Part shown: one piece after another, positions 30,655 to 51,141 of the stretch
How the letters are laid out: every line of letters starts with the position of its first letter
Numbering within the stretch: position 1 is the first letter of the stretch
NCBI GenBank assembly: GCA_027532775.1
Contig: JAPZTO010000002.1
Coordinates: forward strand, 434,001 to 498,000
DNA length: 64,000 bases
Direction of reading: 5' to 3'
Source of the DNA: Beijerinckiaceae bacterium
GTDB lineage: Bacteria > Pseudomonadota > Alphaproteobacteria > Rhizobiales > Beijerinckiaceae
Program-made: the position numbers and the translations under genes
The notes under the pieces: model-generated
What the model saw: only the letters and a program-made list of their open reading frames with translations
The model's database searches: none
Told to the model about the DNA's origin: nothing

Positions 30655-30663
30655 GCCAAGACC

Positions 30664-32064: not shown

Positions 32065-32069
32065 GCCGG

Positions 32070-33210: not shown

Positions 33211-33246
33211 CGCGTCAAGAAAGCCTGACGCCAGCGCACCGGCTTT

Positions 33247-33298
33247 CCCTGCCGCGGCAGGGCAAAACGAACTCCGGCGGCCGCCCTGCCGGAGTTTT
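33247..33298 (+). terminator. Tandem hairpins between tctC and tctB
   Basis: A perfect 16-base palindrome (CCCTGCCGCGGCAGGG, 33247-33262) is followed by a nine-base-pair stem (33270-33278 with 33288-33296, nine-base loop) and a short T-run (TTTT, 33295-33298). The second hairpin has the form of a weak rho-independent terminator. It would cut most transcripts after the receptor gene and so set a high receptor-to-permease ratio. Confidence 0.6.
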
Positions 33299-33318
33299 CC
33301 TTCCTCTGAAAGGACTGG

Positions 33319-33816: not shown

Positions 33817-33820
33817 CCTC

Positions 33821-36690: not shown

Positions 36691-36737
36691 CGCGTCCCTC
36701 TCCCGCATTCAGGTTTCAGCCATTCAGCTGTCTGCTC

Positions 36738-36767
36738 TTGACGACAGCAAAATGTTCTATATCTAAT
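36738..36767 (+). promoter_or_regulatory. Candidate promoter of the UTRA regulator gene
   Basis: TTGACG at 36738-36743 and TATCTA/TCTAAT at 36760-36767 give a -35/-10 pair with a 16-18 base spacer, the only AT-rich stretch in the divergent region. It overlaps the inverted repeat at 36753-36770, which fits repression by the GntR protein. Confidence 0.45.
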
Positions 36768-36770
36768 ACA
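36753..36770. promoter_or_regulatory. Imperfect palindrome overlapping the regulator promoter
   Basis: TGTTCTATATCTAATACA pairs at 12 of 18 positions with its own reverse complement (pattern TGT-N2-TA-N-AT-N-TA-N2-ACA), the size and symmetry of HutC/UTRA-type GntR operators. It lies 47 bases before the regulator start and could serve both divergent genes. Confidence 0.45.
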
Positions 36771-36816: not shown

Positions 36817-37653
36817 GTGGTTGCTATCGAGCCGTCCAAGACGCAACGCCTGTATCTGCTTCTCAAGGAGCAGATCCTGAAGGGCGTGCTGTCTCCCGGG
36901 CATCGCCTGCCCTCGGAGCCGCAACTTGCGGCCCAGCACCGCCTTTCCCGTGTCACCATCCGCCGCGCGCTCGAGGGGCTGGAGCAGGATGGCCTGATCC
37001 GCCGCCAGCCCGGGGCCGGAACCTTCGTACTCGATGCGCGGCCGCGCAAGGGCGTGGTCGGCGATCTCTCGAACATGCTCGCGCATCTCGTGGCGATGGG
37101 GCGCGCCACCCGCGCCAAGCTGCTCTCCTTCAGCTACCAGCCATCACCGCCGGTCGTCTCGGCCGCGCTGAAGCTCGTCGATGGCGAGCGCGTGCAGCAT
37201 TCCATCCGCGTTCGCTACATCGACGACACACCGTTTTCGCACCTGACGACCTACGTGCCGGAGCGGATCGGCGTCACCTATTCGGAAGCTGATCTCGCGA
37301 GCACGCCGCTTCTGACCTTGCTCGAACGCTCCGGCGTCGTGGCGGACCGCGCGAGCCAGACTGTGACCGCCACCCTGGCCGGGCCGGAAATCGCTGAACT
37401 CCTCCAGGTCGAGATCGGGTCACCGCTGCTGAGCATGACGCGCGTGGTCTATGATGATCACGGCCGCGGCGTCGAATATCTCTCCGCCCTTTACCGGCCT
37501 GACCTGCACAGCTTCCAGATGGAGATGACCCGGACCGGGATCGGCGCCGAACGGCGCTGGTCCCCGGTCTCGAGCCTGACCCGACCCGGAGCGGAGACAA
37601 AGCCACTTCCCGGCCGGGGCAATTCCCGCCGTCCGTCCATCACGCCGCTCTAG
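36817..37653 (+). CDS. GntR-family regulator with UTRA domain (HutC subfamily)
   Basis: A 278-residue regulator. The winged helix is at about 10-72 (RLYLLLKEQILKGVLSPGHRLPSEPQLAAQ, LSRVTIRRALEGLEQDG) and a chorismate-lyase-like UTRA ligand domain at about 90-245 (VQHSIRVRYIDDTPFSHLTTYVP, GSPLLSMTRVVYDDHGRGVEYLSALYRPD). HutC-subfamily regulators bind small acids or sugars. It starts with GTG at 36817 with AGGGAG upstream. It lies just before the Liv-type operon, which it probably controls together with itself and the divergent flavoprotein gene. Confidence 0.88.
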   Translation: MVAIEPSKTQRLYLLLKEQILKGVLSPGHRLPSEPQLAAQHRLSRVTIRRALEGLEQDGLIRRQPGAGTFVLDARPRKGVVGDLSNMLAHLVAMGRATRAKLLSFSYQPSPPVVSAALKLVDGERVQHSIRVRYIDDTPFSHLTTYVPERIGVTYSEADLASTPLLTLLERSGVVADRASQTVTATLAGPEIAELLQVEIGSPLLSMTRVVYDDHGRGVEYLSALYRPDLHSFQMEMTRTGIGAERRWSPVSSLTRPGAETKPLPGRGNSRRPSITPL

Positions 37654-37774: not shown

Positions 37775-38992
37775 ATGACGAAACTTTCCGGCTTTGACCG
37801 CCGGTCGCTTCTGAAGACCGCTGCGCTCGGTTCGATTGCCACAATCGGCATGCCTGCCGTGCTGCGGGCGCAGGCTCCGGCCATCAAGATCGGCATCCTC
37901 CAGCCGGTGACCGGCGCGCTCGCGCAGGATGGCGAATATGGCCGCCTTGGTGCCGAGATCGCCCTCAAGGAACTCAACGCTGCCGGCGGCATCAAGTCGA
38001 TGGGCGGCGCCAAGCTGGAAATGGTGTTCGGCGATGCCCGGTCCAACCCGGAAGGCGGCACGCAGGAGGTCGAGCGCATGCAGGCCGAGGGTGTCGCGGC
38101 GATTGTCGGCGGCTTTGCCTCGCCGATCTGCCTCGCGGCCAGCCAGGCGGCCTCCCGCTATGATATTCCCTATCTCGTCGATGTCGGCGTGTCGGACCAG
38201 ATCGTGAAGCGCGGCCTGAAGAACACCTTCCGCTTCGGTCCGGGCTTCGGCTCTGTCACCGCCTCTGCGCTCGACAACCTGGTGAAGCTCAACGATGCCG
38301 CCGGCAAGCCGGCGAAGACGGTTGTCATTGTCCATGAGGACGGGCTGTTCGGCTCGGGCATGGCGAAGCTGCTTCAGGCCGAATTGCCGAAGCGCGGCTT
38401 CGAGGTGCTGGAAACCGTCGCCCATCCGACGCCGTCGCGCGATATGGCGAATGTCGCCCTGCGGATCCGCGCGCTGAACCCGGATCTCGTCATCCCGTCG
38501 AGCTATTATTCGGAATTCGTGCTGCTTGCCCGCACCATGCAGCAGCAGCGCATCAAGCCGAAGGGCATCTATGCGGTGCTCAATGGCGCGGCCTCGAATT
38601 TCCGCTTCGTGAAGGAATTCCCGACTGCGGCCGAGAACGTGATGGACTGCAACCACTGGGCCGATATGCGCAAGCCGCGCACGGCCAATGTGAAGGCCGA
38701 GGTGGAGCGGGCTGGGAAGGTCTGGCTCTACAACACGCCGCTCAACTACTCGTCCGTGCTGGTGCTGGCGGATGCGATCGAGCGGGCCGGCTCGGCTGAC
38801 CGGGTGAAGATCATCGAGGCGCTCAACAGCTCGACTTTCTCCGACCATATCATGCCCTATGGCCCGACCAAGTTCGTGGAAGGCCAGAATACCGGGGCGC
38901 AGGCGGTCAATACGCAGGTCCAGAACGGCGACATCAAGATCATCTTCCCGACCGATGTCGCCAATGCCAAGCCGGTCTTCCCGGTAACCTGA
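37775..38992 (+). CDS. Leu/Ile/Val-type ABC transporter substrate-binding protein
   Basis: A 405-residue receptor with a Tat-like signal (FDRRSLLKTAALG then a hydrophobic stretch to LRAQA near residue 33). The mature type I periplasmic-binding fold starts IKIGILQPVTGALAQDGEYGRLGAEIALKELNAAGGI and contains VVIVHEDGLFGSGMAKLLQAELPKRGFEV. It is strongly like LivK-type receptors of catabolic operons rather than classical amino acid LivK. AGGAGA precedes the ATG. It is the first gene of the operon to about 51089; the ligand is unknown and presumably the substrate of the enzymes downstream. Confidence 0.92.
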   Translation: MTKLSGFDRRSLLKTAALGSIATIGMPAVLRAQAPAIKIGILQPVTGALAQDGEYGRLGAEIALKELNAAGGIKSMGGAKLEMVFGDARSNPEGGTQEVERMQAEGVAAIVGGFASPICLAASQAASRYDIPYLVDVGVSDQIVKRGLKNTFRFGPGFGSVTASALDNLVKLNDAAGKPAKTVVIVHEDGLFGSGMAKLLQAELPKRGFEVLETVAHPTPSRDMANVALRIRALNPDLVIPSSYYSEFVLLARTMQQQRIKPKGIYAVLNGAASNFRFVKEFPTAAENVMDCNHWADMRKPRTANVKAEVERAGKVWLYNTPLNYSSVLVLADAIERAGSADRVKIIEALNSSTFSDHIMPYGPTKFVEGQNTGAQAVNTQVQNGDIKIIFPTDVANAKPVFPVT

Positions 38993-39074
38993 CGGTTCAG
39001 GAACGGCCTGTCCTTTAGATGGCTGCGCTTCCGGCGCGGGCGTTCGCGCCCTCGCCTCCCCTTTGCATGGTCTG

Positions 39075-39950
39075 ATGATGCTGAAGCTCGACATCTTCCT
39101 CTCGGCCCTCGCCAATGGCCTTCTGACCGGCGCGGTCTATGCGTTGATCGCGCTCGGCCTGACGCTGATCTATGGCGTGCTGCACATCATCAACTTCGCC
39201 CATGGCGCGACGCTGACGCTGGCCATGTTCGCAGTCTTTGTCGCGCATCAGGCTTTCGGGCTTGACCCCTACATCGCTGTCTTCATCCTGACGCCGCTGT
39301 TCTTCGTCCTTGGCTATGCGCTCCAGCGGGCCGTCATCACCCCGGCCAGCCATGGCGATGACGGCAACATCCTGCTGGTGACGCTTGGCGTCTCGATCAT
39401 CATCGAGAATGCCCTGCTCGCGATCTTCCGCTCCGATACGCGGTCGATCGATGTGCCCTATGGCTTCTCGGTGATGGAAGTCGGAACGCTCTTCCTCTCG
39501 ACGCCCAAGGTGATTGCCTTTGTCGCTACCCTCGCCGTGGCCGGGCTGCTGTGGCTGCTGCTGGCGCGGAGCGATACCGGCAAGGCCATCCGGGCCGTGG
39601 CGAAGGAGAAGACCGGCGCGGCACTCTGCGGGATCGATGTCGCGCATATCTATGCCGTCACCTTCGGCATCGGCACGGCTTGCCTCGCCATCGCCGCCTG
39701 CCTGCTGATGCCGACCTTCCTCGTCAATCCGCGCGTCGGTAATGCCTTCGTGCTCGTGGCCTTCACCATCGTCGTGCTTGGCGGGATGGGCTCGATCGGC
39801 GGTGCGCTGGCGGGCGGGCTCATCATCGGCGTGGTCGAGAGCCTTTCCGGGCTCTATTTCGGCGAAAGCCTCGGACAGATCGGCATTTTCCTGATCTTCC
39901 TCGTCGTCCTGCTTTTCCGGCCGACCGGCCTGTTCGGAGCCAAGGCATGA
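39075..39950 (+). CDS. livH: Branched-chain-type ABC transporter permease LivH
   Basis: A 291-residue membrane permease with eight or so helices and the LivH block GLLTGAVYALIALGLTLIYGVLHIINFAHGATLTL. The EAA-like loop IRAVAKEKTGAALCGI and the final VLLFRPTGLFGAKA are typical. I take the ATG at 39075 (or 39078) because the upstream TTG at 39063 adds only a few residues. The gene overlaps livM by four bases (ATGA). Confidence 0.94.
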   Translation: MMLKLDIFLSALANGLLTGAVYALIALGLTLIYGVLHIINFAHGATLTLAMFAVFVAHQAFGLDPYIAVFILTPLFFVLGYALQRAVITPASHGDDGNILLVTLGVSIIIENALLAIFRSDTRSIDVPYGFSVMEVGTLFLSTPKVIAFVATLAVAGLLWLLLARSDTGKAIRAVAKEKTGAALCGIDVAHIYAVTFGIGTACLAIAACLLMPTFLVNPRVGNAFVLVAFTIVVLGGMGSIGGALAGGLIIGVVESLSGLYFGESLGQIGIFLIFLVVLLFRPTGLFGAKA

Positions 39951-40939
39951 AGGGCGGCTTCCTCACCAGCGGCTACGGGCCGATCCTGATCGTGGTGGCG
40001 GCCTTGGCCATCCTGCCCTTCGGCTTCTCGGCCAATACGACGCTGAATTTCCTCGGCTTCGTGCTGATTGTCACGCTTGCGGCGCAGGGCTGGAACCTTC
40101 TGGCCGGCTATGGCGGGCAGTTCTCCTTCGGCCATGCTGCCTTCTTCGGCATGGGCGCCTATGGCATTGCATTGGCGCAGGTGCGGTTCGGCCTCAACCC
40201 CTGGCTGGCTTTGCCACTGGCCATCGCGCTCGGGGCGCTGACGGGCACGATCCTCGGCTATCTCAGCTTCCGGGCGCGGCTGCGCGGCTCGTATTTCGCG
40301 CTGGTCACGCTTGCCTTTGCCGAGGTGTTCCGCATCCTTGCCAATGCCTCCGCCTTCACCGGCGGGGCTGCGGGCGTGCTGATCCCGCTGCGGATCGATG
40401 CCGCGAATTTCCAGTTCGCGGACAAGCGGAGCTTTTACTGGCTCGCCTTGTCCTTCGTTGCCTTCGTGCTGTTGTTGACCCATTGGATCGCCCGCAGCCG
40501 GTTCGGGGCCTATCTCGTCGCGGTGCGCGAGAACGAGGATGCTGCCCGGGCGCTCGGCGTGGATGCGCTGGCCGTCAAGCTCAAGGCCATCACGCTGTCG
40601 GGTGGCATCACGGCAGCGGCCGGCTGTCTCTACGCCCAGAAGTTCCTCTACATCGACGCCAATCTCGCCTTCGGGCCGTGGATCTCCGTCGAAGCGTTGC
40701 TCGCGCCGATCATTGGCGGGATCGGCACCGTGTTCGGGCCGCTCGCCGGGGCGGTTCTCCTCCTGGGCCTCGGCGAGGTGACCAAGACCTTCTTCACCTG
40801 GCTGCTTGGCGGCGCGGTGCCCGGGATCGACCTCGTGGTGTTCGGCGTGTTGCTGATCCTTTGCGTCGCCTTCGCGCCGCGTGGCGTGCTGGGTGTGCTG
40901 CGCCGGATCGTGCCCGCCTTCCGGGGAGGTCGGCCATGA
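39947..40939 (+). CDS. livM: Branched-chain-type ABC transporter permease LivM
   Basis: A 330-residue permease with LIVTLAAQGWNLLAGYGGQFSFGHAAFFGMGAYG and the cytoplasmic loop VAVRENEDAARALGVDALAVKLKA that contacts the ATPase. It overlaps livH and livG by four bases each, so the transporter is translated as a coupled unit. Confidence 0.94.
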   Translation: MKGGFLTSGYGPILIVVAALAILPFGFSANTTLNFLGFVLIVTLAAQGWNLLAGYGGQFSFGHAAFFGMGAYGIALAQVRFGLNPWLALPLAIALGALTGTILGYLSFRARLRGSYFALVTLAFAEVFRILANASAFTGGAAGVLIPLRIDAANFQFADKRSFYWLALSFVAFVLLLTHWIARSRFGAYLVAVRENEDAARALGVDALAVKLKAITLSGGITAAAGCLYAQKFLYIDANLAFGPWISVEALLAPIIGGIGTVFGPLAGAVLLLGLGEVTKTFFTWLLGGAVPGIDLVVFGVLLILCVAFAPRGVLGVLRRIVPAFRGGRP

Positions 40940-41692
40940 AAACGGCTCCCCTGCTCTGCTGCACCGGCATCACCAAGCGCTTCGGCGGGCTCGTGGCCGT
41001 GGATGATGCCTCGCTCGATGTCGAGGCCGGCTCGATCACCGGGCTGATCGGGCCCAATGGCGCTGGCAAGACGACATTCTTTACCGTCATCGCCGGCTTT
41101 GCCGAGCCGACGGCCGGGTCCGTCAGCTTCCAGGGCCGGGACATCACCACCCTGCCCGCGCATCGGCGGGCGGAGATCGGCATCGCCCGCACTTTCCAGA
41201 TCGTGCAGCCCTTTGCCGGGCTCTCGGTGCGCGAGAACATCGCCGTCGGGGCCTATCTGCGCCATCCCGGCCGTGAGGCGGCCATGACCCGGGCTGAGGA
41301 TATCGCCAATCGCCTCGGCCTCGGCCCGATGCTCGACCAATCCGCTGGCGATCTCACGGTGGCCGGGCGGAAGCGGCTGGAAATGGCGCGGGCGCTGGCG
41401 ACAGAGCCGAGCCTGCTGCTGCTCGACGAGGTTCTCGCCGGGCTCAACCCGTCGGAAATCCGCGACATGATCCCCGTCGTTCGGGCCATCCGCGATTCCG
41501 GCGTGACGATCCTGATCGTCGAGCATGTGATGCAGGCGGTGATGCAGCTCTGCGATACGGTGGCCGTGCTGGCGCAGGGCCGGATGATCGCGAAGGGCCG
41601 GCCGGCCGAAGTGGCATCCGATCCGAAAGTCATCGAGGCCTATCTCGGCCATGGTGCCGCCAAGCGGATGCAGGCCCAGCAGGGAGCGTCCC

Positions 41693-41700
<8 letters not shown>
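40936..41700 (+). CDS. livG: Branched-chain-type ABC transporter ATPase LivG
   Basis: A 254-residue ATPase with Walker A GPNGAGKT (about 38-45), the RTFQIVQPFAGLSVRENIAVGAYL segment typical of LivG, Walker B LLLLDEVLAGL and VEHVMQAVMQL. The signature is the degenerate DLTVAGRKRLEMARALA form (LTVAG in place of LSGGQ) seen in several LivG proteins. It overlaps livF by eight bases. Confidence 0.93.
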
Positions 41701-42394
<694 letters not shown>

Positions 42395-42396
42395 CG

Positions 42397-43782
42397 ATGA
42401 AAACGCTGTCCCATGGCGTGGTTCCCGCCTCGCGCCTCGTCACCGGCAAGCACCCGGCATGGTTGCGGCAATGGAGCCGTTTCGCCTCCCGGACGAAGTT
42501 GCAGGACATGCCGCCCGAAGCGGTCAGCCGCGCGCGGCTGGTGGCTTTGGATTGCCTTGGCGCGATCCTGGCCGGACGAACGGAACCGGAAGTGCAGCAG
42601 GCCGCGCGGCGGCTGGGCAAGAGCTTCCGCGCCCGGAAATCCGGATCCCCGGCGTTGGAGGCCTTTCTCGATGGCACAGCCGGCACCATGCTGGAAATCG
42701 ACGAAGGCAACCAATATGCGCGCGGCCATCCGGGCATCCATGTGCTGCCCGCGCTGATGGCCTCTGTCCGCCTGCGTGACGTTTCCGGCGCATCTTTCCT
42801 GCGGGCGCTGATCCTCGGCTACGAGATCGGAGCGCGGATCGGCATGGCCTCGAAGCTGCGCGTTACCATGCATCCGCATGGCACATGGGGCGTGGTGGGT
42901 GCGGCCCTCGGCGTGGCGGCGCTGAACCGCGCCGGGCCGGGCCGGATGCTCTCGACGATCAATGTCGCCTCCTCGCTTGGCCTGACGACAAGCCGGCGAA
43001 CCATGCTGGAAGGCGCAACCATCCGGAACAGCTATGCCGGGTTCTCCAACATGCTCGGGCTGATGGCCTGGGAGCTGGCGGAGGCCGGCTTTACCGGCGA
43101 AGCCGACGGCGTCGGCTCGGTCTATGGCGGCATTGCTGCTGAAAACTGGGAACCTGCGGTGATGACCGAGGCGCTAGGCACGCGCTGGGAAATCGCCCGG
43201 AACTATTTCAAGCGTCACGCCGCCTGCCGTTACACGCATGGCGCGATCGATGCGCTGATCGAGATTACCCGGCGGCACGGGCGGCCGCTCAAGCCGGCGG
43301 CGATCCGCGCGATCCGGGTCGATACCTATGTCTGGGCGGCGCAGCTTGACCACCCGTCGCCGGACAACATGCTGGCGGCGAAATTCTCGCTGCCCTTCGC
43401 GCTGGCAACAACCATCGTCAACGGCGCGGCAACGTTGTATGCCTTCCGCGATACCGCGCGGGCCGACGAGGTGACGCGTGCGCTTGCCCGGCGCGTCGAG
43501 GTGCATGAGGACCCTGCCCTCACCGCGATGCTGCCCGGCCTCCGCCCTGCCCGGGTGACGGTAACGCTGGAAAGCGGCGAGAGCCTTGTCCACGAAGTCC
43601 GCACCAATCGGGGCGATACGGAAGATCCCTACAGCGCCGAGGACGTGATCGCGAAGTTCCGCGAGATCGCGGATCCGCTGCTTGGCCCCCGCCGGGCCGA
43701 AGCCGTTGTCACCCAGGCTTTGACGCTCGAGACCCTGCCTTCCACCCGCGCATTCCTCACTCTTGGCGAGACCCTCGCATGA
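42397..43782 (+). CDS. MmgE/PrpD family protein
   Basis: A 461-residue member of the MmgE/PrpD family, which includes 2-methylcitrate dehydratase, cis-aconitate decarboxylase and iminodisuccinate epimerase. Family features are RARLVALDCLGAILAG near 45, GTAGTMLEIDEGNQYARGHPGIHVLPAL at about 90-118 (the usual HxxDxD segment appears here as EIDEGN), MHPHGTWGVVGAALG near 160, YFKRHAACRYTHGAIDAL near 272, and the C-terminal YSAEDVIAKFREI. It is the first enzyme gene after the transporter and overlaps the next gene by four bases. The specific reaction, a dehydration or isomerisation of a carboxylic acid, is not deducible. Confidence 0.87.
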   Translation: MKTLSHGVVPASRLVTGKHPAWLRQWSRFASRTKLQDMPPEAVSRARLVALDCLGAILAGRTEPEVQQAARRLGKSFRARKSGSPALEAFLDGTAGTMLEIDEGNQYARGHPGIHVLPALMASVRLRDVSGASFLRALILGYEIGARIGMASKLRVTMHPHGTWGVVGAALGVAALNRAGPGRMLSTINVASSLGLTTSRRTMLEGATIRNSYAGFSNMLGLMAWELAEAGFTGEADGVGSVYGGIAAENWEPAVMTEALGTRWEIARNYFKRHAACRYTHGAIDALIEITRRHGRPLKPAAIRAIRVDTYVWAAQLDHPSPDNMLAAKFSLPFALATTIVNGAATLYAFRDTARADEVTRALARRVEVHEDPALTAMLPGLRPARVTVTLESGESLVHEVRTNRGDTEDPYSAEDVIAKFREIADPLLGPRRAEAVVTQALTLETLPSTRAFLTLGETLA

Positions 43783-44666
43783 GCCAGAACGGACATGACA
43801 TTCCAGGGCTGAAAGCCCGCCTGAAAAGGCGGCCGATCCTGCTCGCCCCGGGCATCTATGATGCGCTCAGCGCCTCCATCGCCACCGATGCCGGGGCGGA
43901 AGCGCTGTATCTCTCCGGCGCGGCTATTGCCTATACGCGGCTCGGGCGGCCCGATATCGGCCTTGTCTCGATGAACGAGGTGGTCGAAACCATCGCGCTG
44001 ATCCGCGACCGGGTTCCGACGCCGCTGATCGTCGATGCCGATAACGGCTATGGCAATGCGCTGAACATGCAGCGGACGATGCGCCTCTTCGAACGGGCCG
44101 GCGCCAATGCCCTGCAGATCGAGGATCAGGCCTATCCGAAGCGCTGCGGCCATCTCGCCGACAAGACGCTGATCTCGCCATCCGACATGTCCGGCAAGTT
44201 GCGCGCGGCGGCCGATGCCCGCCATTCGGAGGAAACGCTCATCATCGCCCGCACCGATGCCATTGCGGTGGAAGGCTTTTCCGCCGCGATCGACCGGGCC
44301 TCGCTCTATGCCGAGAGCGGCGCCGATGCGCTGTTCGTCGAGGCGCCGGGCAGCGTCGAGGAACTCGCGCGCATCACAGAAGCGCTCAAAGGCACGTTGC
44401 CGCTGATGGCGAACATGGTCGAGGGCGGGCGCACGCCGCTCATTGCCGCGCAGGAACTGGAAGCCCTGGGCTTCGCGCTGGTGATCTTCCCCGGCGGCAT
44501 TGTCCGGGCCATCGCCCATGCGGCTCAGGCCTTCTATGCGAACCTGCTGCAGAACGGCACGACATCCGGCTTCCGCAACGCGATGTTCGATTTCGACGAA
44601 CTCAACACCGTGATCGGCACGCCCGAAATGCTGGCCCTGGGCAAGAGCTACGAAGGACAGCCATGA
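43779..44666 (+). CDS. Isocitrate lyase/PEP mutase superfamily lyase
   Basis: A 295-residue TIM-barrel enzyme of the PEP mutase/isocitrate lyase superfamily. The Mg2+ site is DADNGYGNA (Asp86, Asp88), followed by ALQIEDQAYPKRCGH with Glu115/Asp116 and the catalytic-loop Cys123. The KRCGH loop marks C-C lyases such as methylisocitrate and 2,3-dimethylmalate lyase rather than PEP mutases. It would cleave a 2-hydroxy-dicarboxylate, probably to pyruvate or glyoxylate plus a carboxylic acid. The LeuCD-like genes downstream suggest an alkylmalate substrate. It overlaps neighbours by four bases on both sides. Confidence 0.88.
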   Translation: MSQNGHDIPGLKARLKRRPILLAPGIYDALSASIATDAGAEALYLSGAAIAYTRLGRPDIGLVSMNEVVETIALIRDRVPTPLIVDADNGYGNALNMQRTMRLFERAGANALQIEDQAYPKRCGHLADKTLISPSDMSGKLRAAADARHSEETLIIARTDAIAVEGFSAAIDRASLYAESGADALFVEAPGSVEELARITEALKGTLPLMANMVEGGRTPLIAAQELEALGFALVIFPGGIVRAIAHAAQAFYANLLQNGTTSGFRNAMFDFDELNTVIGTPEMLALGKSYEGQP

Positions 44667-46402
44667 CCACGCTCGACCCCGTGACCTTCGCTGTCCTGAC
44701 CGGGCGGCTGGAGCAGATTGCCGACGAGATGGATGCCACGCTCTATCGCTCGGCCTTCAACCCGATCATCGCGGAAGCGCGCGATGCCTGCCACGGCCTT
44801 TACCATCGCGAGACGGGCGATACGCTGGTTCAGGGGCAGAATGGCCTGCCGATCTTTGTCGGTGCCATGGCCTTTGCCGTGAAGGCGGTGATCGACAAGG
44901 TCGCGCGGGATGGCGGGCTTGAGGAAGGCGATGTCTTCCTGTTCAACGACCCTTACGCCGGTGGCACGCATCTCAACGATTTCCGGCTGGTCAAGCCGCT
45001 GATGCGGCAGGGACGGATCTTCGCATGGCTCGCCTCGGTCGGGCATTGGCTCGATATCGGCGGTAATGTGCCCGGCGGCTACAACCCCAAGGCGGTGGAA
45101 AGCTTCCAGGAGGGTGTACTCATCCCGCCGGTCAAGCTCTTCCGCAAGGGCGTGCTGCAGCAGGATATCGTCGATATCCTGCAGGCGAACAGCCGCGTGC
45201 CGCGCTCGAACTGGGGCGATCTCAACGGCCAGCTCAATGCGCTCGATCTCGGCGAAAGGCGGTTCCAGGCGCTGATCGATGATTACGGCGATGCCGTCGT
45301 CGAAGCCGCACTGGAAGCCGCGTCGCAGCGGGCCGAACGGCTGATGCGCGACAACATCGCCGCGCTACCGGACGGCGTCTACACGTTCGAGGATTATCTC
45401 GACAATGACGGCATCACCGACGAGCGGCTGACCATCGCGCTCGACCTGACGATTGCCGGCGAGACGATGGTGCTGGATTTCTCGCGCTCGTCGCCGGCCT
45501 GCCGTGGACCTGTCAATATCGCGCGGTCAACGGCGGTCGCAGCCTGCTATGTCGCGCTGAAGCATGTCTTCACGGAAGTGCCGGCCAATGCCGGCTGCCT
45601 GAGGCCGATCACCTTCGAGATTTCGGACAAGAGCTTCCTTGGCGTTTCCGCGCCACGCCCGGTTGCGGGCTATACCGAGACGATCCTGCGGATGATCGGC
45701 GTGGTGTTCGGCGCCCTCGCCCAGGCCGATCCTGCCCGGGCCACGGCGGCGCCGTTCGGCACGATCAACGCCCTGTCCGTCGCCGGCCATCGCGCCAATG
45801 GTGATCGCTGGGTGATGTTTTCGTTCTTCGGCGGGGGGCTGGGCGGCAATCCGGAAACGGATGGGCTCAACCATTCCAACAACCCGATCTCGACCGCCAC
45901 GATGCCGCCAGCCGAGATCCTCGAAGCTTCCTATCCGGTGATGTTCACGGAATGGGGCCTCCGCCCGGACAGTGCCGGCGCGGGGCAGCATCGCGGCGGG
46001 ATGGGGGCGGTCTATGCGCTCGAGGTGCTCGCAGAGAGCGGCGCGGAAGTCGCCTTGCTTGGCGAACGCGGGCGCTATGCGCCGTTCGGCGTGGCCGGCG
46101 GCCAGCCCGGCGCGCTCAACCTCTTCCAGTGGCAGAGCGATAGCGGCCTGCAGACCCCGCCCATGGCCTCCAAGATCACCGGGGTGCGGATCGCCCCCGG
46201 GCAGGAAATCCGGCTGCAATCGCCCGGCGGCGGCGGCTGGGGCCCTCCGATGGCGCGCGATCCGGCAGCGGTTGCCCGCGATGTCCGGCTGGGCCTGCTG
46301 ACGGCCGAGGCGGCGCGGGATGTGTATGGCGTCGGCCTTGATGGCGGCGGCGGGGTCGATGCAGCGGCGACGGCCGCGCTGAGAAGCGGGGCGGCGCGAT
46401 GA
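44663..46402 (+). CDS. Hydantoinase B/oxoprolinase family protein (HyuB)
   Basis: A 579-residue HyuB-type subunit of ATP-dependent cyclic amide hydrolases (N-methylhydantoinase, 5-oxoprolinase) or the related acetone/acetophenone carboxylases. Landmarks are EARDACHGLYHRETGDTLVQGQNGLPIFVGAM, NDPYAGGTHLNDFRLVKP, DFSRSSPACRGPVNIARSTAVAACY, PVAGYTETILRMIGVVFGAL and the C-terminal GGGGWGPP. It overlaps the HyuA gene by four bases; the pair form the enzyme. Together they would open an imide- or lactam-type ring using ATP; the true substrate is unknown. Confidence 0.92.
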   Translation: MTTLDPVTFAVLTGRLEQIADEMDATLYRSAFNPIIAEARDACHGLYHRETGDTLVQGQNGLPIFVGAMAFAVKAVIDKVARDGGLEEGDVFLFNDPYAGGTHLNDFRLVKPLMRQGRIFAWLASVGHWLDIGGNVPGGYNPKAVESFQEGVLIPPVKLFRKGVLQQDIVDILQANSRVPRSNWGDLNGQLNALDLGERRFQALIDDYGDAVVEAALEAASQRAERLMRDNIAALPDGVYTFEDYLDNDGITDERLTIALDLTIAGETMVLDFSRSSPACRGPVNIARSTAVAACYVALKHVFTEVPANAGCLRPITFEISDKSFLGVSAPRPVAGYTETILRMIGVVFGALAQADPARATAAPFGTINALSVAGHRANGDRWVMFSFFGGGLGGNPETDGLNHSNNPISTATMPPAEILEASYPVMFTEWGLRPDSAGAGQHRGGMGAVYALEVLAESGAEVALLGERGRYAPFGVAGGQPGALNLFQWQSDSGLQTPPMASKITGVRIAPGQEIRLQSPGGGGWGPPMARDPAAVARDVRLGLLTAEAARDVYGVGLDGGGGVDAAATAALRSGAAR

Positions 46403-48462
46403 GCAGGGTGCGAAGTTCCATTGTCGGCGTGGATGTCGGCGGCACGTTCACCGACCTCGCCTATTTCGACGAGGCCAGCCGCAGCTTCCGTGTGGCGAAG
46501 GTTCCGTCGAACCGCGGCGACGAGGCGGTCGGCTTCATCGACGGGCTGCGCCAGCTCGACACGATCGAGGCTTTGGGCGCCATCGTCCATGGCACCACCG
46601 TGGGCACGAATGCCCTGCTGGAGCGCAAGGGCGCGCGGATCGGGCTGATCACCACGCGCGGCTTCCGCGACGTGCTGGAAATGCGCCGGCGCGACCGCCC
46701 GAAGACCTGGGGCCTCTGGGGCGATTTCGAACCGGTGGCGCCTCGCGACATGCGGCTCGATGTGGCCGAGCGCGTGCTGGCCGATGGCACGGTGCGGCAG
46801 GCGGTTTCTGCCGAGGAATGCCAGCAGGCCGCGCGGGCACTTCTGGCGGCCGGGGCCGAGGCCGTCGCCATTGTCTTCATCAACGCCTATGCCAATCCCG
46901 TCAACGAAAAGGCCGCCTACGCGGCGGTGAAGGCGGTCTGGCCGAATGACCATGTCGCGGCATCGCATCAGCTTTTGCCGGAGATCCGTGAATTCGAGCG
47001 CACCTCCACGCTCGCGCTCAATGCCTATCTCCAGCCGGTCGTGGCATCCTATCTGGCCAAGCTGGAAGACGCACTGGCGGCGGACGCGTTTGGCGGGTCC
47101 TTCCATATCGTCCAGTCCAATGGCGGGGTCATGTCCACCGCTGTTGCCCGGAAATTCCCGGTCCGCACCGCCTTGTCCGGCCCGGCGGCCGGCGTGATCG
47201 CGGCCGCGGCGATTGCGCGGGCGGCCGGGTTCCCGGATATTGTCACGGCGGATCTTGGCGGCACGTCTTTCGATGTCTCGCTCGTCGCCGGCGGCGAGGC
47301 GGCCCTTGCGGCACAGACGACAATCGATTTCGGCCTCATCGTCCGGACGCCGATGATCGAGATCACGACAATCGGCGCCGGGGGCGGGTCGATCGCCCAT
47401 GTCGACAAGGGCGGCTTGCTGGCTGTCGGGCCGGAAAGCGCCGGCTCGCGGCCGGGCCCTGTGGCCTACGCGCAGGGCAATACCCGCCCGACACTGACCG
47501 ATGCGAATATCGTGCTCGGGCGGATCAATGCCGAAAAGCCGATCGGCGGCAAGCTCAAGCGGCTGGATGTCGAGGCGGCACGCGCGGCGATCGGCACCAC
47601 GATCGGGGACAGGCTGGGCCTTTCCATCGAGGCGGCGGCCGAAGCGATTGTCCGCGTCGCCAATGCGAAGATGGCCGGGGCTATCCGCCTTGTTTCCATC
47701 GAGCGCGGCCATGATCCGACGAAATTCACCGCCGTGCCCTTCGGCGGCGGTGGCGCGTTGCATGTCGGGGCGTTGATCCACGAGGTCGGGCTTCGCTCGG
47801 CTCTGGTGCCGCGCTATCCCGGCATCACCTCGGCGCTCGGCTGTATCATCGCGGATATCCGCCATGACGAGGTCGCGACCGTCAATCTCATGCTTGACGG
47901 GCTGGATACCGGGGCGCTGAGCCGCCGGATGGTCGAAACCGGCGAGGCTGCCCGCTCGGTCGTGGCCGGCGCGTCGCTCTCTGTCACGCGGATCGACATC
48001 GCCTATGAACTCGATATGCATTATCTCGGGCAGACGCATACGGTTGCCGTGCCGCTGACCGCAACACTGAAGGACGGGCGGGTCGATCTCACCGAGGCCG
48101 ATGTGCGCGCCGCCTTCGAGGCCGCCTATTCCCGGGCCTTTTCGCGGCTACTTCCGGGGATTCCGGTGAAGATCGTCAATCTCCGCACGGCGGCGATCGG
48201 CCGTCGGCCCGAATTCGACCTTGCGGCTCTCGCGCCGTCCGGCACGACCACGCTCGAAGGCGCAAGAACGGGAACGCGGCCGGTCTGGTTCGCCGGCGGC
48301 TGGCACGAGACGGCGATTTATGCCCGGCTCGACCTGCCGGTCGGGGCGCGGATCGCCGGGCCGGCCATTCTCGAACAGCCGGATTCCACCATTGTCGTCG
48401 ATCCCGGCCTTGCGGCGCGGGTCGATGCCTTCGGCAATCTCATCGTGGAAAGGGACAGCTGA
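46399..48462 (+). CDS. Hydantoinase A/oxoprolinase family protein (HyuA)
   Basis: A 687-residue HyuA-type subunit with an actin/HSP70-like ATPase fold. It begins VGVDVGGTFTDLAYFDEASRSFRVAKVPS, then IVHGTTVGTNALLERKGARIGLITTRGFRDVLEMRRRDRP, SNGGVMST, ADLGGTSFDVSLVAGGE and GGGSIAHVDKGGLLAVGPESAGSRPGPVAYAQG. Partner of HyuB just upstream; ATP probably phosphorylates the substrate amide. Its last base overlaps the start of the isochorismatase-like gene. Confidence 0.93.
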   Translation: MSRVRSSIVGVDVGGTFTDLAYFDEASRSFRVAKVPSNRGDEAVGFIDGLRQLDTIEALGAIVHGTTVGTNALLERKGARIGLITTRGFRDVLEMRRRDRPKTWGLWGDFEPVAPRDMRLDVAERVLADGTVRQAVSAEECQQAARALLAAGAEAVAIVFINAYANPVNEKAAYAAVKAVWPNDHVAASHQLLPEIREFERTSTLALNAYLQPVVASYLAKLEDALAADAFGGSFHIVQSNGGVMSTAVARKFPVRTALSGPAAGVIAAAAIARAAGFPDIVTADLGGTSFDVSLVAGGEAALAAQTTIDFGLIVRTPMIEITTIGAGGGSIAHVDKGGLLAVGPESAGSRPGPVAYAQGNTRPTLTDANIVLGRINAEKPIGGKLKRLDVEAARAAIGTTIGDRLGLSIEAAAEAIVRVANAKMAGAIRLVSIERGHDPTKFTAVPFGGGGALHVGALIHEVGLRSALVPRYPGITSALGCIIADIRHDEVATVNLMLDGLDTGALSRRMVETGEAARSVVAGASLSVTRIDIAYELDMHYLGQTHTVAVPLTATLKDGRVDLTEADVRAAFEAAYSRAFSRLLPGIPVKIVNLRTAAIGRRPEFDLAALAPSGTTTLEGARTGTRPVWFAGGWHETAIYARLDLPVGARIAGPAILEQPDSTIVVDPGLAARVDAFGNLIVERDS

Positions 48463-49067
48463 TGGCTGCGCCGTTCGACATGGCCAAAGCCGGCCTGCTG
48501 CTGGTGGATCTGCAGAATGATTTTCTCGATCCGAAGGGCGCCTATGGCCGCGCCGGCCAGGGCGCGGCGGAAATCGCTGCCCTGCCCGGCCGGCTGGCGC
48601 CGCTGGCGGAGGCCTTTCGCCGCAAGGGCGCGCCGGTGCTGGCAACACATTTCACGCTGGTGCCGGGGCGTGGCGGCGAGCCGATCATCTCGCCGCATCT
48701 GAAGCAGCTCCGCCCCTTCCTCGCCAGGGGTGACTTCGCTCCCGGCAGTTGGGGGCAGCGCACGGTAGATGCATTGCAGCCGGTGGATATCGCGGTGGAG
48801 AAGGTGGCCTATTCGGCCTTCTATATGAGCCGTCTCGAATGGGTTTTGCGCAAGACCGGTATCAGCCAGCTCGTGGTCGCCGGCATTGTCACCAATGGTG
48901 GGGTGGCCTCGACCGTCCGCGAGGCGCATGTCCGCGATATTGACGTCGTTGTGCTCGAGGATGGCTGCGCGGCCTTCTCGCCGGACACGCACCGGACGGC
49001 CATCGATGCCTTGCGCCCGGTCGCTCGCATCGCCACCATTGCCGAGATGCTGGCGGAAATCGGATAA
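48462..49067 (+). CDS. Isochorismatase-fold hydrolase with Gly in place of the nucleophilic Cys
   Basis: A 201-residue isochorismatase-like alpha/beta protein. Asp16 (GLLLVDLQNDF) and Lys114 (EKVAYSAF) of the usual Asp-Lys-Cys triad are present, but the third position in AGIVTNGGVASTVREAH is Gly147, where cysteine hydrolases (nicotinamidase, maleamate amidase, N-carbamoylsarcosine amidase) have Cys. True isochorismatases such as EntB and PhzD also have Gly here, so the protein may hydrolyse a vinyl ether or other non-amide bond rather than form a thioester. It follows HyuA without a gap and precedes LeuC/LeuD-like genes. Confidence 0.85.
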   Translation: MAAPFDMAKAGLLLVDLQNDFLDPKGAYGRAGQGAAEIAALPGRLAPLAEAFRRKGAPVLATHFTLVPGRGGEPIISPHLKQLRPFLARGDFAPGSWGQRTVDALQPVDIAVEKVAYSAFYMSRLEWVLRKTGISQLVVAGIVTNGGVASTVREAHVRDIDVVVLEDGCAAFSPDTHRTAIDALRPVARIATIAEMLAEIG

Positions 49068-49076
49068 GGCGAGCCC

Positions 49077-50477
49077 ATGGGACAAGCCCGGACGCTTTTC
49101 GACAAGGTATGGGACAGCCATGTCATCGTCACGCGCGAGGATGGCGAGAGCCTGCTCTGGGTCGACCGGCATTTCGTGCATGAGGGCTCCCATCATGCCT
49201 TCCGGCAGGTCGAGGCGCGTGGCCTGCCCGTGGCCGAGCCCGGCCTGACCTTCGGCGTTGCCGATCATTATGTACCCACACGGAACCGGCCCGCCATCGA
49301 CAATCCGGAGATTGCCGGCATGGTCGAGAGGCTTTCCGGCAATGCGACGCGGCATGGGTTCCGGCTTTTCGGCCTCGAGGATCCCGATCAGGGCATCGTC
49401 CACGTTGTCGGGCCGGAACAGGGGCTGACCCTGCCGGGCCTGCTCGTTGTTTGCGGCGACAGCCACACCTCCACCCATGGGGCGCTGGGTGCCTATGCGT
49501 TCGGGATCGGCGCCTCGGAAGTGGCGCATGTGCTGATGACGCAGACGCTCTGGCAGCGGAAGCCGAAGCGCATGCGCATCCGGATAGACGGCAATCTCGC
49601 CCCGGGCCTGAGCGCGAAGGATCTCGCGCTGCATGTCATCCGCACGATCGGCGCAGACGGCGCGCGCGGCCATGCGGTGGAATATGCGGGAGAGGCGATA
49701 TCCGCCCTGTCGATGGAGGGGCGGCTCACCCTGTGCAACATGTCGATCGAGGCCGGCGCCCGCTGCGCCATGGTCGCGCCGGATGCCGTGACCTTCGCTT
49801 ATCTGCGCAGCCGGCCGCTTGCCCCGCAAGGCGAGGTATTCGAGCAGGCCTGTGTGGCATGGCAGGCGCTCGCCAGCGATCCGGATGCTGTATTCGACCG
49901 CGATATCGCCCTCGACGCCTCGGCCATCGCACCGCTTGTCACCTGGGGGGTGAGCCCCGAGGATGCCTTGCCGATCGATGCCCGCGTACCGGACCCTGCC
50001 GCCGAGGCTGACCCGGCCCGGGCCGGTTATCTCGAACAGGCGCTCGCCTATATGGGCCTCCGCGCCGGAATGCGGCTGGAGGATGTCACGGTCGACCGTG
50101 TCTTCATCGGGTCCTGCACCAATGCCCGGATCGAAGATCTCCGCGCAGCAGCGGCGATCCTTCAGGGCCGGAAGGCGGTCGTACCGGGGCTGGTTTCGCC
50201 CGGCTCCTCCCGCGTCAAGGTGCAGGCAGAGCGCGAGGGGCTCGACCGGGTCTTCCGCGAGGCCGGGCTCGAATGGGCGGATTCCGGCTGTTCCATGTGC
50301 GTCGGCATGAACGGCGATCTCGTTGCCCCTGGCGAACGCTGCGCCTCGACCACCAACCGGAATTTCCGCGGACGGCAGGGGAAAGATGCCCGGACGCATC
50401 TGATGTCGCCGGCCATGGTCGCCGCTGCCGCCGTGACCGGCCGGCTGACGGACCTGCGCAAGCTGGCAGGAGGTTGA
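49077..50477 (+). CDS. LeuC-like hydro-lyase large subunit (aconitase superfamily)
   Basis: A 466-residue large subunit of the isopropylmalate isomerase type, full length for bacterial LeuC. The Fe-S ligands are visible: Cys in FIGSCTNARIEDLRAAAAIL and the Cys pair in DSGCSMCVGMNGD. DSHTSTHGALGAYAFGIGASEVAHVL and GEDALP-like active-site segments follow the family pattern. In this operon it need not be leucine biosynthesis: LeuCD-like pairs also hydrate maleate, citraconate and dimethylmaleate. The small subunit follows three bases later. Confidence 0.9.
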   Translation: MGQARTLFDKVWDSHVIVTREDGESLLWVDRHFVHEGSHHAFRQVEARGLPVAEPGLTFGVADHYVPTRNRPAIDNPEIAGMVERLSGNATRHGFRLFGLEDPDQGIVHVVGPEQGLTLPGLLVVCGDSHTSTHGALGAYAFGIGASEVAHVLMTQTLWQRKPKRMRIRIDGNLAPGLSAKDLALHVIRTIGADGARGHAVEYAGEAISALSMEGRLTLCNMSIEAGARCAMVAPDAVTFAYLRSRPLAPQGEVFEQACVAWQALASDPDAVFDRDIALDASAIAPLVTWGVSPEDALPIDARVPDPAAEADPARAGYLEQALAYMGLRAGMRLEDVTVDRVFIGSCTNARIEDLRAAAAILQGRKAVVPGLVSPGSSRVKVQAEREGLDRVFREAGLEWADSGCSMCVGMNGDLVAPGERCASTTNRNFRGRQGKDARTHLMSPAMVAAAAVTGRLTDLRKLAGG

Positions 50478-50480
50478 TCC

Positions 50481-51089
50481 ATGGAACGTTTCATACGTCT
50501 TGATGCGCGCGCTTGCCCGCTTGGCCTCGCCAATGTCGATACGGACCAGCTCATCCCCGCCCGGTTCATGAGCCGGCCGCGCAGCGAGGGCTATGGCCGC
50601 TTCCTGCTGCATGATCTCCGCTTTGGCCCGGACGGGCAGAGTCTCGGCTTCGCGCTTGACGATGCCCGCCATGCCGGTACGGGGGTGATCGCAGCGCGAC
50701 GGAATTTCGGCACCGGCTCCTCGCGCGAGGCGGCGGTCTATGCGCTCTGGGATTACGGCATACGCTGCGTGATCGCTCCGTCCTTCGGCGATATCTTCGC
50801 GTCGAACGCCGTCAAGAACGGCCTCCTCCCGGCGCAGGTCAGCCCCGAGGATGCCGAAGCGATCCTGGCTTCGCTGGAAGCCGCCGAGGTTCCGCACCTC
50901 GTGGTCGATCTGGAAACCCTGCGGATCGAGGTTGGGGGGCGATCCTTCGCATTTGCCATTGATGCCGTCCGCCGGCTGCAATTGCTCAACGGCTGGGACG
51001 ACCTCGACCTGACGCGGCGGCATGCCGGCGAGATTGCAGCGTTCCGTACTCGCCGGCTCGCCGAGGCGCCCTGGCTGCTGCCGGGCTGA
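50481..51089 (+). CDS. LeuD-like hydro-lyase small subunit
   Basis: A 202-residue small subunit with the LeuD start LANVDTDQLIPARFMSRP (binding of the substrate carboxylates), GFALDDARHAGTGVIAARRNFGTGSSREAAVYALWDYGIRCVIAPSFGDIFASNAVKNGLLP (residues about 55-115) and the VDLETLRIEVGG segment. It pairs with the large subunit at 49077 to form a hydratase/isomerase. It is the last enzyme of the operon before the GPH permease. Confidence 0.9.
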   Translation: MERFIRLDARACPLGLANVDTDQLIPARFMSRPRSEGYGRFLLHDLRFGPDGQSLGFALDDARHAGTGVIAARRNFGTGSSREAAVYALWDYGIRCVIAPSFGDIFASNAVKNGLLPAQVSPEDAEAILASLEAAEVPHLVVDLETLRIEVGGRSFAFAIDAVRRLQLLNGWDDLDLTRRHAGEIAAFRTRRLAEAPWLLPG

Positions 51090-51141
51090 TCGGTTCGCCA
51101 CGCCGGCGCGTAAGCCGGGCAGGTCCTCACAGGAAATGCCG

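What the first reader, a model, noticed from the sequence alone, without database searches (positions are those of the whole stretch)
37775..51089. Uncharacterised operon pairing a Liv-type importer with HyuAB, isochorismatase-fold, LeuCD-like and isocitrate-lyase-type enzymes
Nine or more genes joined by four-base overlaps form one unit: ABC importer, MmgE/PrpD protein, KRCGH-type lyase, HyuB, HyuA, isochorismatase-fold protein, LeuC- and LeuD-like subunits, with a GntR/UTRA regulator ahead. Known chemistry suggests a route: HyuAB opens a cyclic imide or lactam with ATP, an isochorismatase-fold protein processes the product, a LeuCD-type hydratase makes an alkylmalate (LeuCD homologues hydrate citraconate, maleate and dimethylmaleate), and the lyase cleaves this to pyruvate plus a short acid. 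Parts resemble nicotinate fermentation (dimethylmalate dehydratase and lyase) and creatinine breakdown, but I know of no described operon with this set. The pathway is inference; the gene set is seen.
Basis: partly seen in the sequence, partly recalled or inferred. Interest (0 to 1): 0.8.

Follow-up and report, generated by a model that had tools for sequence, protein, structure and literature searches.

The report
Conserved operon likely degrading cyclic imides
A 14-gene set shared by many alphaproteobacteria looks like a complete, undescribed pathway that imports a small nitrogen-containing ring, opens it with ATP and cuts the carbon skeleton into common metabolites.

Summary
The gene set is real, and larger than described: a divergent FAD enzyme (35290-36708, minus strand) belongs to it. 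The 14 genes recur together in 14 of 18 MmgE-positive genomes of the order and in 44 of 57 untruncated loci of a second collection (Methylobacterium, Azospirillum, Microvirga, Bosea). A promoter-overlapping palindrome precedes gntR in 56 of 66 upstream regions. Lyase and LeuCD are absent together from 10 loci. The cluster LeuCD is a paralogue with its own LeuD signature.

HyuB keeps all four lactamase metal ligands. Betaproteobacterial MmgE relatives often sit beside CE4/PuuE-type hydrolases, a fold that includes cyclic imidases, which supports ring opening. But the isochorismatase-fold protein has Gly where amidases have Cys (89 of 89), so it is no ordinary amidase. MmgE is IDS-epimerase/cis-aconitate-decarboxylase-like, not PrpD.

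Best reading: breakdown of a substituted five-membered imide through a substituted maleate and malate to a 2-oxo acid plus a short acid. The substrate is unproven; a hydantoin-like ring remains possible. Searches of an open-access library listed no description.

The parts
35290..36708 (-). FAD_binding_2 flavoprotein (472 aa), proposed ring desaturase
   Evidence: Pfam 5.3e-49; present in 13 of 13 other full clusters of the order and in 72 of 80 loci of the second collection, truncated ones included; fold of urocanate/fumarate reductase; both active-site Arg positions are Tyr, invariant in the 25 sequences aligned
36738..36770 (+). Promoter -35-like TTGAC plus 18-bp palindrome TGT-N12-ACA in the FAD/gntR divergent region
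   Evidence: same arrangement upstream of gntR in 56 of 66 distinct regions, 0 in each of 30 shuffles
36817..37653 (+). GntR/UTRA (HutC-like) regulator
   Evidence: Pfam UTRA 1.6e-33, GntR 1.5e-18
37775..38992 (+). Liv-type substrate-binding protein
   Evidence: Peripla_BP_6 1.7e-49
39063..39950 (+). LivH permease
   Evidence: ORF; 70-86% identical in 13 other full clusters; counterpart annotated as branched-chain amino acid ABC permease
39947..40939 (+). LivM permease
   Evidence: ORF; 64-78% identical in 13 other full clusters; counterpart annotated
40936..41700 (+). LivG ATPase
   Evidence: start ATG at 40936 overlapping LivM by 4 bases; conserved; counterpart annotated
41693..42394 (+). 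LivF ATPase
   Evidence: start at 41693; conserved; counterpart annotated
42391..43782 (+). MmgE/PrpD-family protein of the IDS-epimerase/cis-aconitate decarboxylase branch
   Evidence: Pfam; profile vs PDB 8.8e-36 IDS-epimerase, 8.9e-36 B. subtilis IRG1, 1.4e-4 PrpD; H113, H161, K274 in 97 of 97 rows
43779..44666 (+). PrpB/dimethylmalate-lyase-type C-C lyase (KRCGH)
   Evidence: TIGR02317 277.9 bits, below its cut-off 354.4; KRCGH in 82 of 82 rows
44663..46402 (+). HyuB, metal-bearing ring-opening subunit
   Evidence: PF02538 1.4e-169; D41/H103/D106/H128 align with CapB D41/H99/D102/H124, conserved in 91 of 91 rows
46399..48462 (+). HyuA, ATP-binding subunit
   Evidence: PF01968 3.8e-87; DVGGT, DLGGT and GSRPGP aligned with CapA motifs
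48462..49067 (+). Isochorismatase-fold protein of the Asp-Lys-Gly class
   Evidence: PF00857 1.4e-39; D16, K114, G147 in 89 of 89 rows (82 distinct sequences); G147 aligns with the Cys of triuret hydrolase
49077..50477 (+). LeuC-like large subunit, cluster-specific paralogue
   Evidence: leuC model 637 bits; apart from housekeeping-type LeuC in the tree; own genome has another LeuC, 54% identical, which is 68-77% identical to housekeeping-type and 53-59% to cluster copies
50481..51089 (+). LeuD-like small subunit with GSSREAA signature
   Evidence: leuD model 155 bits; GSSRE[A/G/S]A in 75 of 75 cluster copies (69 distinct sequences)

Best explanation
This is one complete catabolic unit for a small N-containing ring, most likely a substituted five-membered cyclic imide (succinimide/maleimide type). 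Proposed steps, all inferred unless marked: (1) the Liv-type ABC importer takes up the ring compound, and GntR de-represses the unit through a palindrome that overlaps the promoter (palindrome shown, regulation inferred). (2) The FAD enzyme desaturates the ring next to a carbonyl. (3) MmgE epimerises or isomerises a ring or ring-opened intermediate. (4) HyuAB opens the ring with ATP at the metal site of HyuB (catalytic residues shown, reaction inferred). (5) The Asp-Lys-Gly isochorismatase-fold protein helps release the nitrogen by acid catalysis, without a Cys nucleophile, perhaps assisted by the substrate's own neighbouring carboxylate. (6) LeuCD hydrates the resulting substituted maleate to a substituted malate. 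(7) The PrpB/dimethylmalate-lyase-type enzyme splits it to pyruvate or another 2-oxo acid plus a short acid. The claim that the genes form one pathway of 'ring opening, then hydratase and lyase' is much safer (about 0.7) than the imide identity, to which the confidence below refers.
For: Conserved linkage: 14 of 18 MmgE-positive genomes of the order; all 14 genes in 44 of 57 untruncated loci, and MmgE+HyuBA+Isoch+FAD in 56 of 57. Shared palindrome in 56 of 66. HyuB metal tetrad 91 of 91 and HyuA ATP motifs. CE4/PuuE-like genes next to MmgE relatives in 12 of 21 betaproteobacterial loci, 14 of 21 within 9 kb, against 181 such genes in the 20 genomes. In Verticiella, MmgE, CE4, LeuCD, importer, lyase and FAD lie together, with no HyuAB match in the 20-kb stretch. 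Fungal HxnM, a CE4-type protein, is a cyclic imidase and is 64% identical to a P. putida cyclic imide hydrolase (passages of PMC9304392 and PMC8478523). Lyase and LeuCD absent together from 10 loci. No Pfam/NCBIfam match of the eleven operon proteins scanned points to an aminotransferase or ammonia-lyase, so an imide, which yields a dicarboxylate rather than an amino acid, fits best. Five-membered imides give vicinal cis-dicarboxylates, the substrate type of the LeuCD family (established knowledge).
Against: No substrate, product or expression data exist here. The isochorismatase-fold protein lacks the amidase Cys, so half-amide hydrolysis is not explained simply. PuuE itself opens a hydantoin ring (allantoin), and the three CE4 proteins scanned score with the PuuE model, so the CE4 evidence does not separate imide from hydantoin. 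7 of 21 betaproteobacterial loci have no CE4 gene in the stretch read. In 12 Roseomonas-type genomes no lyase match above 45% was found, so the pathway does not always end this way. Verticiella has no match to the isochorismatase-fold protein either. HyuAB homologues also include carboxylases.
Confidence: 0.42

Rival explanations
1. The ring is a hydantoin or ureide: HyuAB opens it to an N-carbamoyl compound, the isochorismatase-fold protein releases urea or carbamate by acid-catalysed hydrolysis of an N-C=C (enamide) bond made by the FAD enzyme, and the resulting acid enters LeuCD and the lyase.
For: HyuAB is about equally close to N-methylhydantoinase and caprolactamase (HyuB 262 and 271 bits, HyuA 410 and 387). 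The three CE4 proteins scanned score best with PuuE allantoinase, though far below its cut-off (118, 136 and 148 of 424.6 bits). Characterised isochorismatase-fold relatives near the top of the sequence list act on ureides (triuret hydrolase, RutB, names also). Related loci carry Asp/Glu/hydantoin-racemase-family genes.
Against: A hydantoin normally ends in an amino acid, and no amino-acid-consuming enzyme was recognised among the operon proteins scanned. LeuCD and the lyase need a malate-type acid, not an amino acid.
Confidence: 0.25
2. A carbon-only polycarboxylate route, a variant of the methylcitrate or tricarballylate pathways: the FAD enzyme desaturates a tricarboxylate, MmgE and LeuCD isomerise it, the PrpB-like enzyme cleaves it, and HyuAB is peripheral.
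For: MmgE + aconitase-family + PrpB-like parallels PrpD/Acn/PrpB. A 42% MmgE relative lies two genes from tcuAB in Variovorax sp. RA8. The FAD protein hits a TcuA model at 1.8e-46 (159 of 369 bits).
Against: MmgE is not PrpD (26.3 of 950 bits; PDB PrpD 1.4e-4). The lyase is below the PrpB cut-off. HyuBA and Isoch are in 56 of 57 untruncated loci. Both Arg positions of the dicarboxylate clamp are Tyr in the FAD protein. No citrate-synthase-type gene was recognised among the operon proteins scanned.
Confidence: 0.12
3. HyuAB is an ATP-dependent carboxylase of a ketone or enol, and the other enzymes process the carboxylated product; no nitrogen is involved.
For: Acetone and acetophenone carboxylases belong to the same superfamily. 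The Asp-Lys-Gly isochorismatase-fold protein and the others need no nitrogen chemistry.
Against: Similarity is clearly higher to caprolactamase/N-methylhydantoinase (HyuB 271 and 262 bits against 124 and 89; HyuA 387 and 410 against 278 and 246). No extra carboxylase subunit was recognised in the operon. CE4-type amidohydrolases occur in relatives where HyuAB is missing.
Confidence: 0.08

Closest known systems
Nicotinate fermentation of Eubacterium barkeri (dimethylmaleate hydratase DmdAB and 2,3-dimethylmalate lyase; recalled)
   Same: LeuCD-family hydratase followed by a PrpB-superfamily lyase, giving pyruvate and a short acid
   Different: there the alkylmaleate comes from methyleneglutarate by a B12 mutase and an isomerase; here ring opening by HyuAB and a FAD enzyme would precede
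ATP-dependent caprolactamase CapAB / N-methylhydantoinase HyuAB
   Same: two-subunit ATP-dependent ring opening; same metal tetrad and ATP motifs
   Different: bit scores about a third to a half of the CapAB equivalog cut-offs (322 and 504.4 of 1000); different operon partners
Cyclic imide breakdown by CE4-type imidase plus amidase (P. putida YZ-26 imidase, A. nidulans HxnM/HxnN; PMC9304392 and PMC8478523 passages)
   Same: opening of a small cyclic imide before nitrogen release; CE4-type genes stand beside MmgE in betaproteobacterial relatives
   Different: CE4 opening needs no ATP (established knowledge); HxnN is an amidase-family enzyme, whereas here a Cys-less isochorismatase-fold protein is present
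Creatinine / N-methylhydantoin pathway (HyuAB + N-carbamoylsarcosine amidohydrolase; recalled)
   Same: HyuAB next to an isochorismatase-fold protein
   Different: the amidohydrolase there uses Asp-Lys-Cys (recalled); here Asp-Lys-Gly in 89 of 89, and LeuCD, lyase, MmgE and FAD are added
Methylcitrate cycle (PrpD, aconitase, PrpB; recalled)
   Same: MmgE/PrpD family, aconitase family and PrpB family in one operon
   Different: MmgE is IDS-epimerase/decarboxylase-like; lyase below PrpB cut-off; no citrate-synthase-type gene recognised among the operon proteins scanned

Membership tests
ATP-dependent lactamase/hydantoinase (HyuAB, CapAB) | Asp-His-Asp-His metal site in the B subunit | tested here: met
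   D41, H103, D106, H128 in 91 of 91 rows, aligned with CapB
ATP-dependent lactamase/hydantoinase (HyuAB, CapAB) | ATP motifs DxGGT (two) and GxxPGP in the A subunit | tested here: met
   alignment, motifs named; of twelve columns chosen in or beside them eleven are invariant in 90 of 90 rows, one in 88
ATP-dependent lactamase/hydantoinase (HyuAB, CapAB) | ATP-dependent ring opening | not testable with these tools
   needs enzyme assay
Caprolactamase (CapAB equivalog) | score above the NCBIfam cut-off | tested here: not met
   322 of 1000 and 504.4 of 1000 bits
Isochorismatase-fold Cys amidohydrolase (CSHase, RutB, BiuH, maleamate amidase) | catalytic Cys of the Asp-Lys-Cys triad | tested here: not met
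   Gly147 in 89 of 89 rows; alignment with triuret hydrolase
Asp-Lys-Gly isochorismatase-fold proteins (EntB, YecD) | Asp-Lys-Gly active site | tested here: met
   D16, K114, G147 in 89 of 89 rows; YecD and EntB triads from PMC12553813
Asp-Lys-Gly isochorismatase-fold proteins (EntB, YecD) | enol-ether (isochorismate) hydrolysis | not testable with these tools
   needs assay
3-isopropylmalate dehydratase family (LeuCD) | score above leuC/leuD models | tested here: met
   637.1 (cut-off 560.25) and 155.3 (116.25)
Housekeeping leucine-pathway LeuCD | groups with the housekeeping-type copies; GSSREHA in LeuD | tested here: not met
   outside the 10-row housekeeping-type group (quick tree), to which the own genome's other LeuC is closest; GSSRE[A/G/S]A in 75 of 75 cluster LeuD, GSSREHA in 9 of 9 LeuD found beside that group
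Methylisocitrate lyase PrpB | score above TIGR02317 | tested here: not met
   277.9 of 354.4 bits
PrpB/ICL superfamily lyase | KRCGH catalytic motif | tested here: met
   82 of 82 rows
2-Methylcitrate dehydratase PrpD | score above NF042438 | tested here: not met
   26.3 of 950 bits; closer to IDS-epimerase/CAD
Flavocytochrome-c-type fumarate reductase | two substrate/catalytic Arg (Arg402, Arg544 of Fcc3; roles and numbering recalled) | tested here: not met
   Tyr299 and Tyr447 opposite these Arg (alignment), invariant in the 25 chosen sequences
Cyclic imide catabolism | imide accepted as substrate | not testable with these tools
   only indirect: CE4 neighbours of MmgE relatives

The most novel reading that the evidence does not exclude
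A new, widespread pathway for natural substituted maleimides/succinimides, such as those left by oxidation of chlorophyll and bilins (hematinic acid, methyl-ethyl-maleimide; recalled chemistry): FAD desaturation, ATP-dependent imide opening, nitrogen release by a cysteine-less isochorismatase-fold enzyme that borrows the substrate's own carboxylate, then a dialkylmaleate hydratase and a dialkylmalate lyase. It would be a counterpart of the dimethylmaleate branch known from nicotinate fermentation.
Probability: 0.15. Interest if true: 0.8.

Novelty: new variant of a known kind. Interest (0 to 1): 0.6.

Why it matters
If right, it assigns function to proteins that go by family names only in Methylobacterium, Azospirillum, Microvirga, Bosea, Roseomonas and others. 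It would define a cyclic-imide (or related N-ring) sink in these bacteria and give a first role to a cluster-specific LeuCD with its own LeuD signature. It would also show what an Asp-Lys-Gly isochorismatase-fold protein outside siderophore and phenazine synthesis does. It also warns that these leuCD, prpB-like and mmgE genes should not be annotated as leucine or propionate metabolism.

Tried and rejected

Limits of the counts. The phylum-wide sample of 398 genomes found only 2 MmgE relatives at E <= 1e-90, own genome included, so spread beyond alpha- and betaproteobacteria is poorly sampled; distant relatives lie on haloarchaeal plasmids. The 80 loci are the best of 144 relatives, chosen by MmgE, and some are the same genomes as; residue tallies (Isoch 89, HyuB 91, HyuA 90, lyase 82, MmgE 97, LeuD 75 rows) therefore hold a few sequences twice (82, 85, 83, 76, 91 and 69 distinct). 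In one search, 23 of 80 loci were set aside as truncated, identity thresholds were applied (LeuC 64%, lyase 50%), and genes more than 10 kb from MmgE would be missed. One search is a quick tree, midpoint-drawn; paralogues whose matched stretch was short or read through a stop were dropped, the own genome's other LeuC among them; it was compared by BLAST instead, and its LeuD was not found in the 4.4-kb stretch held. Not fitting the simple LeuD signature: three further LeuD copies with GSSRENA (L140, L141, L143) and GSSREGA in L154, outside both groups. In one search, regions with identical last 150 bases were merged (66 kept); ten regions lack the palindrome pattern. For the CE4 adjacency, relatedness of the 21 loci was not corrected for and several stretches end at contig ends. 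The heme/chlorophyll origin of the imide was not tested; it is recalled chemistry plus papers seen only in the listing.
Full report
Observation. The window lies at G000:C17:434001-498000 of a 3.8-Mb genome. The closest relative with a genus name in the second collection is Rhabdaerophilum sp. SD176 (MmgE 94%). Junctions: six four-base overlaps, one of eight, one of one, and gaps of 9 and 3 bases.

Conservation. A search of 397 genomes of the order with the MmgE protein found 18 at E <= 1e-60. Fourteen of these, own genome included, carry FAD, GntR, SBP, LivHMGF, MmgE, lyase, HyuB, HyuA, isochorismatase-fold protein, LeuC and LeuD in one neighbourhood; four (G020, G029, G050, G325) do not. A second collection gave 144 relatives, of which the best 80 were fetched. 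Of 57 untruncated loci, 44 hold all 14 genes, 56 hold MmgE+HyuB+HyuA+Isoch+FAD, and the order MmgE-lyase-HyuB-HyuA-Isoch is kept in 46 of 46 loci that have all five. FAD sits beside gntR in one group and at the end of the operon in others, and LeuCD is divergent from gntR or downstream. In one Xanthobacteraceae genome the set is split in two loci, each with its own gntR: importer+MmgE+FAD (L077) and lyase+HyuBA+Isoch+LeuCD (L195). The names seen are mostly Hyphomicrobiales (Methylobacterium, Microvirga, Bosea, Phreatobacter, Prosthecomicrobium), Azospirillum and Roseomonas-type Acetobacteraceae.

Regulation. Upstream of gntR a TTGAC box is followed by TGT-N12-ACA in 56 of 66 distinct regions and in none of 30 rounds of shuffling. 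In the window it lies at 36738-36770, inside the 108-bp FAD/gntR gap. I infer that GntR binds it.

Modules. In 10 of 57 untruncated loci (Roseomonas/Falsiroseomonas type) lyase, LeuCD and GntR are all missing while MmgE, HyuBA, Isoch and FAD remain; no untruncated locus has cluster-type LeuC without the lyase, and two (L074, L115) have the lyase without LeuCD beside it. Across 12 such Roseomonas-type genomes no lyase match above 45% was found elsewhere. Each of the 12 does hold an unlinked LeuCD (LeuC 61-63%) whose LeuD carries GSSREAA like the cluster copies (12 of 12) and whose LeuC falls in one group of 91 rows with them, apart from the 10 housekeeping-type rows (SH-aLRT 95, quick tree). 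Ten of the 12 have a related ~780-aa gene straight after FAD; the one scanned is a molybdopterin hydroxylase-type large subunit. Its role is unknown.

HyuAB. HyuB is nearest to CapB and N-methylhydantoinase (271 and 262 bits) and further from acetophenone and acetone carboxylase (124 and 89 bits). The metal ligands named for CapB in PMC8453981 (passages read) are kept in 91 of 91 HyuB rows. HyuA keeps the ATP motifs. So it should be an ATP-dependent ring-opening enzyme; the reaction itself is not shown.

Independent support for ring opening. Betaproteobacterial MmgE relatives (5 of 268 genomes; 16 of 399; 20 distinct genomes) were read at 21 loci. A CE4/PuuE-like gene is the immediate same-strand neighbour within 200 bp in 12 of 21 and lies within 9 kb in 14 of 21; 7 have none in the stretch read. 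The same 20 genomes hold 181 such genes, 2 to 20 each, so chance adjacency should be rare, though relatedness of the loci was not corrected for. In Verticiella the neighbourhood is MmgE, GntR, two CE4-type genes, LeuCD, SBP, LivHMGF, lyase (47%), FAD (50%), with no match to HyuAB or the isochorismatase-fold protein in 20 kb. Characterised CE4 members of this kind act on small rings: PuuE on allantoin, HxnM on a cyclic imide, with a P. putida cyclic imide hydrolase as its relative (passages of PMC9304392, PMC8478523 and PMC3084791). I read this as replacement of the ring-opening step by an unrelated enzyme; it does not tell an imide from a hydantoin.

The isochorismatase-fold protein. D16 and K114 are invariant, but the position of the catalytic Cys is Gly147 in 89 of 89 rows (alignment to triuret hydrolase). 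PMC12553813 (passages) assigns Asp-Lys-Gly to YecD and EntB, and reports that wild-type YecD had no gamma-lactamase activity and that the G145C mutant hydrolysed several amides that the wild type did not. In contrast the isochorismatase-fold genes at three loci with CE4-type genes keep a Cys: L207 and L227 in the alignment, and L228 by my reading of the translation. So CE4 opening goes with a Cys enzyme and ATP-dependent opening with a Gly enzyme in what was seen. My suggestion of acid catalysis aided by a neighbouring carboxylate is inference.

Downstream acids. The lyase keeps KRCGH in 82 of 82 rows but misses the PrpB cut-off. LeuCD passes the leucine-pathway models, yet it is a second copy: the own genome has another LeuC (54%) that is 68-77% identical to the housekeeping-type group and 53-59% to cluster copies. 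Cluster LeuD has GSSRE[A/G/S]A in 75 of 75, against GSSREHA in 9 of 9 LeuD found beside the housekeeping-type group; four other copies have GSSRENA (three) or GSSREGA (one).

Interpretation. The enzymes of the LeuCD and PrpB/dimethylmalate-lyase families act on malate-type acids and their cis-unsaturated forms (established knowledge). Opening a five-membered imide and losing its nitrogen gives exactly such a vicinal dicarboxylate, and no amino-acid-consuming enzyme was recognised among the operon proteins scanned. An imide is therefore my first choice (0.42), a hydantoin or ureide the second (0.25).

Novelty. No paper describing this set was listed (open-licence PMC only; titles and abstract starts seen). 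The families are known; the combination, its conservation, the Cys-to-Gly change in this setting and the LeuD signature appear new to me.

Noticed in passing
window 29032-35329: A separate set upstream (KduI/IolB-type, SDR, UxaC-type glucuronate isomerase, TctC, TctA), which looks like uronate catabolism with a tripartite tricarboxylate-type transporter.
   Followed up: no
window 51136-52473: An MFS_2 transporter follows LeuD by 46 bases; matched in 4 of 80 loci of the second collection, the closest relatives only.
   Followed up: partly
L102:17087-19441 and nine further Roseomonas-type loci: A ~780-aa gene directly follows FAD in 10 of 12 loci that lack lyase and LeuCD; the one scanned is a molybdopterin hydroxylase-type large subunit (CO/xanthine-dehydrogenase family).
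   Followed up: partly
L133 (Tistrella mobilis plasmid pTM1) 8405-21025; L134 (Neorhizobium petrolearium) 5386-24074; L035: A variant carries a small tautomerase-like or hypothetical protein, a second FAD enzyme and two Asp/Glu/hydantoin-racemase-family proteins; Tistrella has these without HyuAB or LeuCD in the stretch shown, Neorhizobium and G166 in addition to them.
   Followed up: partly
L207, L227, L228: Isochorismatase-fold genes near CE4-type genes keep the catalytic Cys, unlike the HyuAB-linked ones.
   Followed up: partly
L041:2621-6387; similar ORFs in L082, L099, L110, L121: In Phreatobacter-type loci an M24 peptidase and a chemotaxis receptor with a Cache domain follow the operon (only the L041 proteins were scanned).
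   Followed up: no
L075:95-3892 (Azospirillum): A long ORF reading as a chemotaxis signalling domain followed by a Peripla_BP_5 domain, next to an FmdA/AmdA formamidase, upstream of gntR; related ORFs in 7 loci, only this one scanned. Fusion or artefact not resolved.
   Followed up: no
L135 (Halorubrum ezzemoulense megaplasmid): Haloarchaeal plasmids carry distant MmgE relatives (38-40%); the one viewed lies next to a branched-chain-type ABC importer.
   Followed up: no
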